Below, piece after piece: positions 26,900 to 30,850 of a stretch of 64,000 bases of DNA. The notes beneath the pieces were generated by a model. The model searched no databases, was not told the origin of the DNA, and saw only the letters and a list, made by a program, of their open reading frames with translations. The translations under genes were made by a program, and so were the position numbers. Origin of the DNA: Rhizomucor pusillus (Eukaryota > Mucoromycota > Mucoromycetes > Mucorales > Lichtheimiaceae); the NCBI GenBank assembly GCA_900175165.2, contig FWWN02000524.1, forward strand, positions 120,988-184,987, written 5' to 3'. Every line of letters begins with the position of its first letter. The first letter of the stretch is position 1.

Positions 26900-29698
26900 A
26901 TGTATTCACCTGTGCAAGCGGAGGCCACGGTGCACTTGGCTGACCATACTCCTCCGCTGCACGTTCAAGTGCCTCAGGGCCAGCACTTGGACCACGTCGT
27001 CGCCAATCTCGTGCAGCAGCGTGCCATTCCTCCATACTTGGCCTCCAACGTCGAATCCGCGCTCGCCGTTGCCCTTTCTGAAAAATGCCGACTCGCCCTA
27101 CACGGCAATTCGCTGAGTAGCTCTGACAATCGTCGTCGTCAGCTCTTGAACCAATACCGCCAACATATACGGCAATACCATATAAAGCCAGAGGAGGTTA
27201 GAGCTTCAAGAAAACAAAAAGGCGAATAAAATAGAGCGTGGGGTGGGGAAAGGAAGACGTACATTCGTCATCAAAGATAATTGTGTATGTGAGAGAAGAA
27301 GAATGGCAATGGTTGACGCATTGCTTTCTTTTTTATTTACAGGATATCTTTCCGCGTGCGTACCACACACTCGTGCATTGTCCGATAGAAGACATCTTTG
27401 ATACCCTGCTTGGACTCGAACAAGATTACGCTTCGCTGATTCAAGAACGTTACGCCCAATGTGAGCATGAACTAGAGGAAATCCAAGCGCGGTAATAATA
27501 ATATACGCTGTCTATATACACCTGAATTGTCCGAAACCTAAACATCATCTATCATCAGGCACAATCGAGAAATAGAGTCATCGCCTGGCTCTCCACAAAT
27601 GAACATGACGCATTTGTTTGCCCGTCACGTAGAAGAAATGGAAGTGTTCCAGGCGACGTGGGCCTCCGATATCTTGCAAATCCAGCAGACCCAACGACGC
27701 GAGTACCGATTATTCGTCGTCGAACTGTACCGCGAATACCAGGCGCGACTTGCTGCGTTGATGGACGATGGAACGGGAGGAGGAGGAAGTCTCAGTCTGA
27801 ACGAAGCCGAACGTAAACTCGATGGAAAGGATATGATCAAAGTTGCAGCTGAAAGAGTGCGGAAAGCTTCTCCATCGTCGCCGGGAGACGCAGACGGTGG
27901 CGATAACAACAGTGGCAGCCACGATAATAGTTTATCGAAAAGCAGGGACCGTCAGAACTCTTCGGCAAGTCTCGGCACTGCATCCTTGCTGTCATCCTCT
28001 TCGTCCTTACCGAACGATCTTCAAGCGTCGTCATCCATGACCCGTTCCTTGTCGAAATCAGACGCTGCAGATAAAAAACAACAGTGTTCACCGGTGATCC
28101 GAGATATTCAGGAAATGGGGTTCACAGCCGAGCAGGCGGAAACTGCGCTCCTGCTCTCGAATAACAACATGGAACAGGCTGTCATGCTGCTTATCGAGGA
28201 TATCAGCAAAGTCAATAATGCAGTAGAAAGCAGCAGTAACAGTAGACGTCATTCAAACAGCAGCGGTGCACCTTTCCGTCGATCGTCCTCTGTCGGACAA
28301 CAACAACAACAGCAACAAAAAGGTTCTCCGGCGCATTCTCGAACAGGTTCGTTTCATGAACTGTACAGCAGCAGTGGCGGCAGCGGGTCGCGGCGTCAGT
28401 CGCTCCAACGAAACTCGCTTCCATCTAACCGCTCCACCAAAGGATGGAGCCCAATTTCGTTCTTGCAGCAGCAGAAACAAGTGATGGAGAACACTAACCT
28501 TAGTTCTGTGCGGAAACTGGGTGGATGGCTCGGACGTGCCATGGAAAATCTAGGCATCGAACATGATGAGAGGTAGATAAAACCAACGAGCATATATTTT
28601 TTCTTTGCATCATCTGATCAAAAGGATTTAAAAAAAAGCCTTGGACCTTCATCCACTGCAACGGCGGCATTCTCACATTCGAACGCACAGCAGCAACCGG
28701 TAGAATCCTTCACTATCACGCTTGGCACAGCCCAGGTCAAATCAACGCACAACCTGCGCCTAGTTGTTGTTGATTCAGCCACGGATATCTTCAATCCTCC
28801 GTACGACCCCAGCCGCGAGATGGCGTACAAGGCTCAGACTGCCACCAAATTGTACACGAGCCACCTTAGTGCAATGGTGGTGCTTGTCGATCAAAAGGAG
28901 CTCCAGAGAAGCCAGGATTTCGGCTGGCGGCAGTACAGATCCGGCAAGGGGAGCAACAAGGCCCTGTTTGAACGGTGCCAGCACTCGACAGAGTTCCACT
29001 TTCCAGATATCGAGTCACAGCTCACATTGATTGAACAAGACTTTGCATCGCGCAGCGACGGGTTGCAAGAAGGCAGTTTCTTTGTAACGAGACACTCAAA
29101 TCTACCCCTGACGCAGGTCGTCTTTCATCTTATCATTGACAGCGAAGGTATGTGTATAAATATATATATATAGTTAGTAGGCATCGTGCTCTAACAAATT
29201 TAAAACGTAGCCGTAGCATCAGGTGTCGAGCTGTCAAATCGACATCCTCTCATCATCGGTCTTCGCAATATTCTCGGACTCGTTGCTCGCTACGATATCT
29301 CATCACTCTCGATACCTTTGCTCTTACTACCAGATCCATATCTTGATCAGCCTGTGTATTCAGACCAGCAGCAGCTGGCGTGGCTGCAAAAGAGAGGCGA
29401 AGTTGTCATGAAGTGCGTCAAGGGATTTTTGAGTTCACGAAGCGGCAAAAGACTGCACGCGGAAGCCGGAGATCGCGCAGAAGCTGTGCTGGGAGCTGGT
29501 GGAGGATTGCGCACAGTCGAGTTTTTGTTGCCGAACAAGAGCACCGTGTACGGCAGCGGTAGCAGCGTCGCTGCAGTCACCACCAACGTGATAGAATCAT
29601 CCTTGTCATCTTCTAGTAGTTCTATGCAGCAACAGCAAATCGTAGAAAATGCATTTCAACAGTTCCGTACATTGCTTGTCAATATTTGGCCAGGATAA
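26900..29698 (+). CDS. FERRY3: FERRY3/C12orf4 homologue with inserted UBA domain
   Basis: Predicted 818-aa protein. Exons: 26900..27196, 27343..27491, 27559..28572, 28639..29147, 29211..29698. The N-terminal core (about 1-245) and C-terminal core (508-818) match human C12orf4, subunit 3 of the Rab5-effector FERRY complex that carries mRNAs on early endosomes. Matching blocks include AYHTLVHCP, VESFTITLGTAQVKSTHNLRL, TEFHFPDIESQL, FFVTRHSNLP, PLIIGLRNIL and VVMKCVKGF. Between them is an insert of about 260 residues, Ser-rich and low complexity, that includes a UBA-like three-helix segment (about 328-364, IQEMGFTAEQAETALLLSNN). The human protein is about 550 aa and has no such insert. The acceptor at 28638 (AAAAAAAG) is unusual but is the only one preserving the frame. 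Confidence is good for family, moderate for UBA function. Confidence 0.85.
28094..28206 (+). other. UBA-like domain inside the FERRY3 homologue
   Basis: Residues about 328-364 read I-R-D-I-Q-E-MGF-T-x-E-Q-A-ETALLLSNNNMEQAVMLLIED. This has the UBA hallmarks: MGF loop, Glu/Gln-Ala helix 2, a loop where NN replaces the common GN, and a hydrophobic helix 3. It suggests ubiquitin binding, as known for UBA domains; binding by this copy is inference. Confidence 0.75.
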
Positions 29699-29730: not shown

Positions 29731-30850
29731 TTAAAGATTGTTGTTATCACTAAACAACATTTCTATCGCTGCATTCACGTTGCCGCCCGTAGCCTGCAAT
29801 GCACGAATGTTCTTTGCCGCGTCCCAAAATCCCATCTCGTTCAGCTGCTGCAACTGTACTTGGTATCGTTCTTCAGGCGGTCGGTTATCGACGGGCGCAG
29901 CGGCGGCGCCTGGCATGCCAAACAGTGCGGCCATACGTTGTTGCAATTGAGGATCCATGGGAGGCACATTGCCAAATGCGGCGAATGGATTTGCTGCTGG
30001 CTGTTGTTGCTGTGGTTGTTGATGCTGCTGTTGTGTATTTTGAGGCGATGGCATGCCACCACCCATCATGCCCATACCTTGCATAGCCGAGGCCATGGTC
30101 GCCATTTGCCGAATGACGTCTGGGTTCGAGAGCATTTGCCGAAACTCGGGCGACTGCATCATGTTTCTAATTTCAGGGCCCATAGATGACAAGTGTGGAT
30201 TATTGTTGATAATGGAATCGAGCACCGCTGGATTCTGCAGAACGCTCGACATGTACTGTGCAAACATTGGGTTCTGTAGCATTTGGTTCATAAGTGTAGG
30301 ATCAGGCGCGCCAAAACTGTTGCCCATGGCACCTGCGCCGAAACCAGTGCCAAACATGCCAAACGGATTCGCTGCCGTGCCATCGTTTCCTGCTCCAAAG
30401 GCTGCAAATGGATTGAATGCCGGTTGTTGTTGTTGCTGCTGCTGTGGTGCTGTTGTTTGAGGCGACGAAGCTGCTGCTGGCTGTTGTTGTTGCTGTTGAG
30501 GTTGGGACGACGCGGATGAACCTGTTGCATTATGCATATTAGATTCCCTATTATTCTTTGTTCCCTTCCTTTCTCGTATCGTTCTTCCTCCTACCTGCTG
30601 ATTTGTTGCCGCCGGGCGCTGAACCTTTGACCATGTGTACAGTGCTCTCATTGGATATCTTACAGTCTGCAATGGTATCGTGATCTTTGAGAACACGTCC
30701 AGAGTAGATCAGACGTTGCCGCTCTGCTGGCACATCTGTTTGCTCTGCAATCGCGTTTTTGAGATCCAGGACAGTCTTGGACGTCTCCAGCGTTACAGAG
30801 AATTTCTTGTCACTGGAAGGTTTAATGTTGATTGTGATGCTGCTGGACAT
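29731..30850 (-). CDS. DSK2: Ubiquilin/Dsk2 (UBL-UBA proteasome shuttle)
   Basis: Predicted 348-aa shuttle factor that brings ubiquitylated proteins to the proteasome. Exons 30850..30595 and 30521..29731; the 73-nt intron has a CTAAT branch site. Domain order: N-terminal UBL (about 5-76, LKDHDTIADCKISNESTVHMVKG), Gln/Ala-rich linker, an STI1-like region (NPMFAQYMSSVLQNPAVLDSI, about 165-215), Met/Gln-rich linker, and a C-terminal UBA (about 305-345, LNEMGFWDAAKNIRALQATG). This is the ubiquilin layout at about the length of yeast Dsk2 (373 aa). Its stop lies 32 bp from the stop of the convergent FERRY3 homologue, so the two transcripts very probably overlap. Confidence 0.95.

What the first reader, a model, noticed from the sequence alone, without database searches (positions are those of the whole stretch)
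26900..29698. FERRY3 (C12orf4) homologue carrying an inserted UBA domain
The N- and C-terminal halves match human C12orf4, a subunit of the Rab5-effector FERRY complex for endosomal mRNA transport. About 260 residues are inserted between them, with Ser-rich sequence and a UBA-like segment (about 328-364). The human subunit has no UBA as far as I recall. This would join ubiquitin recognition to an endosomal mRNA carrier in one polypeptide.
Basis: partly seen in the sequence, partly recalled or inferred. Interest (0 to 1): 0.75.

Follow-up and report, generated by a model that had tools for sequence, protein, structure and literature searches.

The report
Fungal FERRY3 with built-in ubiquitin-binding domain
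In early-branching fungi, a protein that in animals belongs to a complex tethering messenger RNA to endosomes carries an extra, well-conserved domain of the kind that usually grips ubiquitin; the animal relatives examined lack it, and what it does has not been tested.

Summary
The gene at 26900-29698 (five exons, 818 residues) is a FERRY3/C12orf4 homologue (Pfam Fy-3, E 1.8e-70). Its insert, about 260 residues longer than in animals, contains a UBA domain (329-362) above Pfam's cut-offs. It is no one-off: of 149 family proteins held, 134 have it, being 134 of 135 fungal ones (Mucorales, Umbelopsis, Calcarisporiella, Mortierellomycota, Glomeromycota, chytrids) and 0 of 14 holozoan ones. The UBA stays conserved while flanking linkers diverge; AlphaFold2 gives a confident UBA fold between disordered linkers.

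The same genome encodes TBCK and a short PPP1R21 that keeps the C-terminal coil which, in humans, is needed to bind TBCK, FERRY3 and Rab5. No clear GATD1 was found, CRYZL1 was not tested, the PPP1R21 helical domain was not detected. A Rab5-linked TBCK-PPP1R21-FERRY3 module is a supported hypothesis; 'mRNA carrier' is not shown. UniRef already auto-names relatives 'UBA domain-containing protein'; I found no paper on the fusion in the library searched. Ubiquitin binding is inferred. Verdict: a real, ancient, conserved domain variant of FERRY3 in early-diverging fungi.

The parts
26900..29698 (+). FERRY3 (Fy-3/C12orf4) homologue with UBA, five exons, 818 aa
   Evidence: in-frame joined model, GT-AG introns; Pfam Fy-3 E 1.8e-70
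26900..27196 (+). exon 1, N-terminal Fy-3 region
27343..27491 (+). exon 2, N-terminal Fy-3 region (conserved FPRAYHTLVH block lies near the start)
27559..28572 (+). exon 3: end of the long coil, linker, UBA, linker, fungal conserved helix block
28088..28210 (+). UBA domain, residues 326-366 (Pfam-matched core 329-362); MGF loop at 335-337, LL at 359-360
   Evidence: Pfam; conservation; AlphaFold2 pLDDT block means 96-97 over residues 330-369; Foldseek matches to solved UBAs
28424..28570 (+). second fungal-conserved block, residues 438-486 (KGWSPISFLQQQK ... SSVRKLGGWLGRAMENLG)
   Evidence: occupancy 0.98-0.99, mean pairwise identity 0.41-0.47 in 61 fungal sequences
28639..29147 (+). exon 4, start of the Macro-like C-terminal domain
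   Evidence: fold shown on the relative P0001
29211..29698 (+). exon 5, end of the Macro-like C-terminal domain
   Evidence: fold shown on the relative P0001

Best explanation
This is the FERRY3 subunit of a Rab5-linked TBCK-PPP1R21-FERRY3 module, in the form typical of early-diverging fungi, where a ubiquitin-receptor UBA domain sits on two disordered tethers between the N-terminal helical half and the C-terminal Macro-like domain. Proposed mechanism: the C-terminal coiled coil of PPP1R21 holds TBCK and FERRY3 and docks them on Rab5-GTP at early endosomes (reported for humans, inferred here). The UBA, free on its linkers, then catches ubiquitin on nearby membrane proteins or trafficking factors through its MGF loop and alpha-3 leucine patch (inferred). 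The module would thus respond to Rab5 and ubiquitin together. Shown here: domain make-up, conservation, predicted fold, and co-presence of TBCK and PPP1R21 in the genome. Inferred: complex formation, endosomal location, ubiquitin binding, cargo.
For: UBA above the curated cut-offs. Present in 134 of 135 fungal family members held, with G 61/61, F 60/61, M 55/61 and L360 61/61 in 61 representatives; conservation score 0.47 in the UBA against 0.13 and 0.18 in the flanking linkers. Confident helices between linkers of pLDDT mostly under 50. In the PDB the first 24 of the 50 rows shown are UBA or UBA-like domains or proteins holding one, among them the Ede1 UBA-ubiquitin complex (rmsd 0.7 over 39 columns) and the Cbl-b UBA-ubiquitin complex (0.6 over 38); no match reaches E 0.001, the best being 0.48, as the domain is small. 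TBCK: TBC E 2e-38, kinase 3.1e-25, rhodanese 5.1e-6. PPP1R21: KLRAQ 2e-18, PPP1R21_C 1.1e-9; its only PDB match at E 0.001 is human PPP1R21 7nd2_A, with the C-terminal piece aligning to human 665-759. Human Fy1 and Fy3 are modelled on Fy2 640-780 (PMC12154601, figure-legend passage; section 10 read). A PPP1R21 shortened by 84 residues is reported to lose the TBCK and FERRY3 site and Rab5 binding (PMC11928052, passages). Drosophila Rab5 columns bind Ccdc128, C12orf4 and TBCK (PMC4232348, passages; Ccdc128 = PPP1R21 is recalled).
Against: No binding data. Some UBAs with an MGF loop may bind partners other than ubiquitin (recalled). Pfam UBA scores are modest: 9 of 61 members of alignment A1 give no PF00627 hit at E 0.01; 5 of these are the holozoan members (no UBA), so 4 of 56 fungal members miss, as do 4 of 18 chytrid-type members. 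One fungus (Spinellus, P0008) seems to have lost the UBA core, so it can be dispensed with. PPP1R21 here lacks a detectable helical domain and no GATD1 was found, so the complex may differ from human FERRY. In the vertebrate brain co-fractionation study a direct Rab5A-FERRY interaction was not strongly supported by its scores (PMC12154601, section 10).
Confidence: 0.55

Rival explanations
1. The UBA is a docking module for another protein or another part of the same complex and does not bind ubiquitin; conservation reflects a fixed partner.
For: UBA-fold domains with non-ubiquitin partners exist: among the fold matches are hHR23A with HIV-1 Vpr (6xqi) and nascent-chain complex subunits on ribosomes (low-ranked rows). 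The best PDB sequence match is the TNRC6C UBA, 2dkl, E 0.001, whose ubiquitin binding I did not check.
Against: The residues used for ubiquitin contact in classical UBAs (MGF loop, alpha-3 leucine; contact role recalled) are among the most conserved ones: G 61/61, F 60/61, L360 61/61.
Confidence: 0.25
2. The UBA regulates FERRY3 itself (coupled monoubiquitination or proteasome delivery, as for shuttle receptors such as Rad23/Dsk2) rather than cargo selection.
For: The UBA resembles shuttle-receptor UBAs in fold (hHR23A ranks first).
Against: Pfam finds no ubiquitin-like domain in the protein at E up to 0.1, unlike Rad23 and Dsk2 (recalled; the neighbouring ubiquilin has one).
Confidence: 0.12
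3. The UBA is a gene-model or local-duplication artefact, for example copied from the Dsk2/ubiquilin gene that lies 32 bases downstream on the other strand, or spliced out.
For: A UBA-bearing ubiquilin-type gene does end at 29731, tail to tail.
Against: The window UBA is 28/43 identical to that of Dichotomocladium FERRY3 and 15/35 to a chytrid's (P0115), against 11/35 to the neighbouring ubiquilin; it is present in 134 of 135 fungal relatives held.
Confidence: 0.02
4. Fungal FERRY3 is a full endosomal mRNA carrier subunit with ubiquitin recognition added.
For: TBCK and PPP1R21 are in the genome.
Against: No GATD1 identified, CRYZL1 untested, PPP1R21 helical domain undetected. A review states that the Rrm4-type endosomal mRNA machinery appears widespread, down to Chytridiomycota and Mucoromycota (PMC12852828, passages), which could do that job; I did not look for Rrm4 in this genome.
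Confidence: 0.2

Closest known systems
Human/animal FERRY3 (C12orf4, Pfam PF10154 Fy-3)
   Same: Same family over the N-terminal helical half and the C-terminal half
   Different: 7 animal proteins aligned have 37-46 residues where 61 fungal ones have 189-412, and no UBA was found in 12 holozoan members scanned with Pfam at E up to 1. The human sequence itself was not scanned.
UBA domains of endocytic and shuttle receptors (Ede1, hHR23A, Cbl-b)
   Same: UBA fold in the model and MGF loop, alpha-3 leucine
   Different: Those proteins have other domains (EH, UBL, RING; recalled); here the UBA is tethered between a helical half and a Macro-like domain
Human FERRY complex (TBCK, PPP1R21, FERRY3, CRYZL1, GATD1)
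   Same: TBCK, PPP1R21 and FERRY3 homologues in one genome; PPP1R21 C-terminal hub kept
   Different: FERRY3 has a UBA; PPP1R21 is shorter without a detected helical domain; GATD1 not found, CRYZL1 not tested
Macro domains (PARP14 macro 2, Oceanobacillus macrodomain)
   Different: Low identity (about 15%); ADP-ribose binding untested

Membership tests
FERRY3 / Fy-3 (PF10154) | Fy-3 profile above curated cut-off | tested here: met
   238.8 bits against 25.8
FERRY3 / Fy-3 (PF10154) | Macro-like C-terminal fold | tested here: met
FERRY3 / Fy-3 (PF10154) | Physical binding to TBCK/PPP1R21 | not testable with these tools
   Both partners are encoded in the genome; binding needs an experiment
UBA domain (PF00627/PF22562) | Profile score above curated cut-off | tested here: met
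   25.4 bits (cut-off 22.4) and 27.4 (cut-off 27)
UBA domain (PF00627/PF22562) | Three-helix bundle fold | tested here: met
   Predicted helices with pLDDT block means 96-97 over residues 330-369 in the window's own exon 3; first 24 of 50 rows are solved UBA-type domains, best E 0.48 for so small a domain
UBA domain (PF00627/PF22562) | MGF/MGY loop and alpha-3 leucines conserved | tested here: met
   M 55/61, G 61/61, F 60/61, L359 53/61, L360 61/61
UBA domain (PF00627/PF22562) | Ubiquitin binding | not testable with these tools
   Inferred from residues only
FERRY complex | TBCK encoded | tested here: met
   kinase, TBC and rhodanese domains in hand-joined frames of one locus at C196 about 80.9-84.3 kb
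FERRY complex | PPP1R21 encoded, with C-terminal hub | tested here: met
   C334:21240-18746(-), KLRAQ 2e-18, PPP1R21_C 1.1e-9, 7nd2_A E 5.4e-24
FERRY complex | PPP1R21 helical domain | tested here: inconclusive
   No hit in the genome (where no control rang either) or in the hand-joined protein at E up to 1; model and profile could both miss a diverged form
FERRY complex | GATD1 encoded | tested here: inconclusive
FERRY complex | CRYZL1 encoded | not tested
   No specific query at hand
FERRY complex | Rab5 and mRNA binding | not testable with these tools
   Needs experiment

The most novel reading that the evidence does not exclude
In early-diverging fungi the TBCK-PPP1R21-FERRY3 module is a ubiquitin-reading Rab5 effector: one FERRY3 chain joins a ubiquitin receptor (UBA) to a Macro-like, possibly ADP-ribose-reading, domain. 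This architecture would be as old as the common ancestor of chytrids and Mucoromycota, while animals show the UBA-less form.
Probability: 0.4. Interest if true: 0.68.

Novelty: new variant of a known kind. Interest (0 to 1): 0.5.

Why it matters
[quoted passage not shown] A version that has kept a ubiquitin-receptor domain from chytrids to Mucorales suggests that the Rab5 module once acted, or still acts, on ubiquitinated endosomal proteins. That gives a direct, testable function for the module outside animals. It would also show that a TBCK-PPP1R21-FERRY3 core exists beyond animals, and that the mRNA role may be a later or separate addition.

Tried and rejected
Local duplication of the neighbouring ubiquilin UBA: rejected by identity. 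SPX-domain similarity of FERRY3 suggested by Foldseek (Vtc4 and osSPX2 chains): rejected, since the aligned part of those chains (173-369, 208-391) matches the Macro-like domain (model ranges 483-819 and 507-817), so by inference it is a fused carrier part of the crystallised chain. UBA in holozoan FERRY3: none in 12 members at E up to 1. Whether the UBA was gained in fungi or lost in holozoans: not settled; three protein searches (capped lists) brought no protein named as amoebozoan or other outgroup, and the two unicellular holozoans (P0133, P0138; identity recalled from the style of their EukProt ids) have no UBA. TBCK by TBC-rhodanese coordinates gave no adjacent pair; by TBC-kinase coordinates (123 of 397 candidates scored, list cut) gave one same-strand pair 3.4 kb apart on C220, judged too far and not followed. 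Solved by reading TBC loci for a TBCK-like motif (the motif is recalled). PF10205 in the raw genome gave nothing although the joined protein scores 2e-18, because the domain is split over small exons; so empty raw-genome answers, including, are weak.

Papers: 'C12orf4' with 'FERRY' 6, 5 listed; two of 'FERRY complex', 'Rab5', 'Fy-3' 14, 13 listed; 'C12orf4' with 'UBA domain' 1, an autophagy and epilepsy review, listing only; 'FERRY3' with 'ubiquitin' 2, unrelated by title, listing only; 'DUF2362' 1; 'TBCK', 'PPP1R21', 'fungi' 0; 'FERRY complex' with 'ubiquitin' 7, 6 listed, of which I saw passages of 3 (PMC12852828, PMC9249222, PMC12154601), not for ubiquitin; 'C12orf4' with 'fungi' 8, of which I opened 2. 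The word 'UBA' was searched only in PMC6500376 and PMC12852828, 0 in each main text. Schuhmacher 2023 and Quentin 2023 are not held, so absence from print is limited to these searches of this library.

Full report
Gene and domains. The coordinates given are exactly the coding span. Five exons with GT-AG introns join in frame to 818 residues. Pfam finds Fy-3 (E 1.8e-70) and, at residues 329-362, UBA_7 (3.2e-6) and UBA (1.3e-5), all above their curated cut-offs, UBA_7 by only 0.4 bits. The window lies in a 24.45 Mb assembly of 353 contigs, at C196:120988-184987. The nearest family members are Mucorales (Dichotomocladium, Lichtheimia, Radiomyces, Apophysomyces, 53-57% identical), so the organism is very probably a Mucorales fungus; its name is not given.

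Distribution of the UBA. Three protein searches left 148 family proteins in hand; one search found 138 and listed the best 120, and each search scored only about 8000 candidates, so some relatives are not in hand. An HMM grown from the window UBA finds the domain in 134 of 149 proteins including the window; the lowest accepted score is 37.5 bits. This HMM was trained on the same set, so I checked it with Pfam. PF00627 matches 52 of 61 members of alignment A1, which includes 5 holozoan members, and 14 of 18 chytrid-type members of A3, at E up to 0.01. No UBA family appears for any of 12 holozoan members of A2, even at E up to 1. Of the 15 proteins without it, 14 are holozoan: 3 named arthropods, 2 EukProt records taken from recalled id style to be unicellular holozoans, and 9 unnamed records judged animal by similarity. 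The other is the fungus Spinellus fusiger, P0008. In P0008 the edges of the domain remain but the MGF stretch is missing and helix residues are changed; this could be real decay or a gene-model fault. The fungal holders span Mucorales, Umbelopsis, Calcarisporiella, Mortierellomycota, Glomeromycota and chytrids, including Hyaloraphidium (names; grouping by recalled taxonomy; some fungal records are unnamed and placed by similarity). UniRef names of at least 20 rows already read 'UBA domain-containing protein'.

Conservation. In 61 fungal representatives including the window, the UBA columns (326-366) have mean occupancy 1.00 and an occupancy-weighted pairwise identity of 0.47; the linkers on either side score 0.13 (251-325) and 0.18 (367-437). 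Residue counts are G336 61/61, F337 60/61 (W in one), M335 55/61, L360 61/61, L359 53/61. A second fungal block at 438-486 scores 0.40-0.46. Five gene models (P0102, P0101, P0105, P0112, P0129; a chytrid, three Mortierellomycota and a glomeromycete, by recalled taxonomy) have an odd stretch beginning with valine right after the same 'NxxM' of the UBA. I read this as an intron retained or mis-spliced at one shared position, which would mean that the UBA codons and their intron predate the split of these phyla. That is an inference from proteins only; a sixth model, P0095, has a single extra residue there that does not begin with valine.

Partners in the same genome. A TBC locus with a TBCK-type signature lies on the same contig, about 63 kb upstream of the FERRY3 gene. 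Its hand-joined frames give RabGAP-TBC 2e-38, Pkinase 3.1e-25 and Rhodanese 5.1e-6. PPP1R21 lies at C334:21240-18746(-), 14 hand-joined exons, 580 codons including the stop, KLRAQ 2e-18 and PPP1R21_C 1.1e-9. Its only PDB match at E 0.001 is human PPP1R21 in the FERRY structure 7nd2; the two significant pieces align to human 7-246 and 665-759, and a middle piece to 521-628 scored 1.3 bits, no support. In humans a PPP1R21 shortened by 84 residues is reported to lose the TBCK and FERRY3 site and Rab5 binding but not mRNA binding (PMC11928052, passages). An AlphaFold3 model places Fy1 and Fy3 on Fy2 640-780, though the same study's co-fractionation did not strongly support a direct Rab5A-FERRY contact (PMC12154601, passages; section 10 read). 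Drosophila Rab5 affinity columns recovered Ccdc128, C12orf4 and TBCK (PMC4232348, passages). So what this genome keeps is the end of the complex that faces Rab5. For the rest I found no GATD1-like gene and did not test CRYZL1.

Reading. The best account is a Rab5 module with a ubiquitin receptor built into FERRY3, conserved across the early-diverging fungi sampled and not seen in holozoans. Ubiquitin binding, complex formation and endosomal location are inferred. The polarity (gain in fungi or loss in holozoans) is open because no outgroup was in hand. The domain fusion is visible in automatic database names, and my paper searches in this library brought up no paper on it that I recognised from listings and the passages seen; the two primary FERRY papers are not held.

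Noticed in passing
window 29731-about 31000 (-): A ubiquilin/Dsk2-type gene (ubiquitin-like N-terminus E 1.1e-23, C-terminal UBA E 1.5e-8) ends tail to tail with FERRY3, 32 bases apart; two UBA genes side by side, not recent copies of each other.
   Followed up: partly
P0008 (Spinellus fusiger), residues about 355-390: The UBA seems decayed: edges kept, MGF stretch missing, prolines and threonines in the helices. Could be real loss or a gene-model fault.
   Followed up: partly
P0101, P0102, P0105, P0112, P0129, inside the UBA: Gene models go wrong at one shared point after 'NxxM', with a valine first, suggesting an old intron inside the UBA codons that the window gene lacks.
   Followed up: partly
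window 28424-28570 and proteins P0133, P0138: A conserved helix SVRKLGGWLGRAM precedes the Macro-like domain in fungi; by eye similar SVFKIGRNMGKAL and SVAGGWLLGKFM occur in two unicellular holozoans but not obviously in the animal proteins printed. Function unknown; possibly a docking or membrane helix.
   Followed up: partly
G000:C196 about 80.9-84.3 kb and 147.9-150.7 kb: TBCK and FERRY3 genes lie on the same contig about 63 kb apart; whether this linkage is shared by other fungi was not checked.
   Followed up: no
L034 (G000:C334:16500-24500), gene on - strand: Fungal PPP1R21 is 580 codons with KLRAQ and C-terminal coil but no detected helical domain.
   Followed up: partly
P0068, P0071, P0126, P0143: Family members in databases fused to unrelated domains (Pfam PF00171, acireductone dioxygenase by name, Spt4, FSH1/STIMATE), probably gene-model fusions of neighbours.
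   Followed up: no
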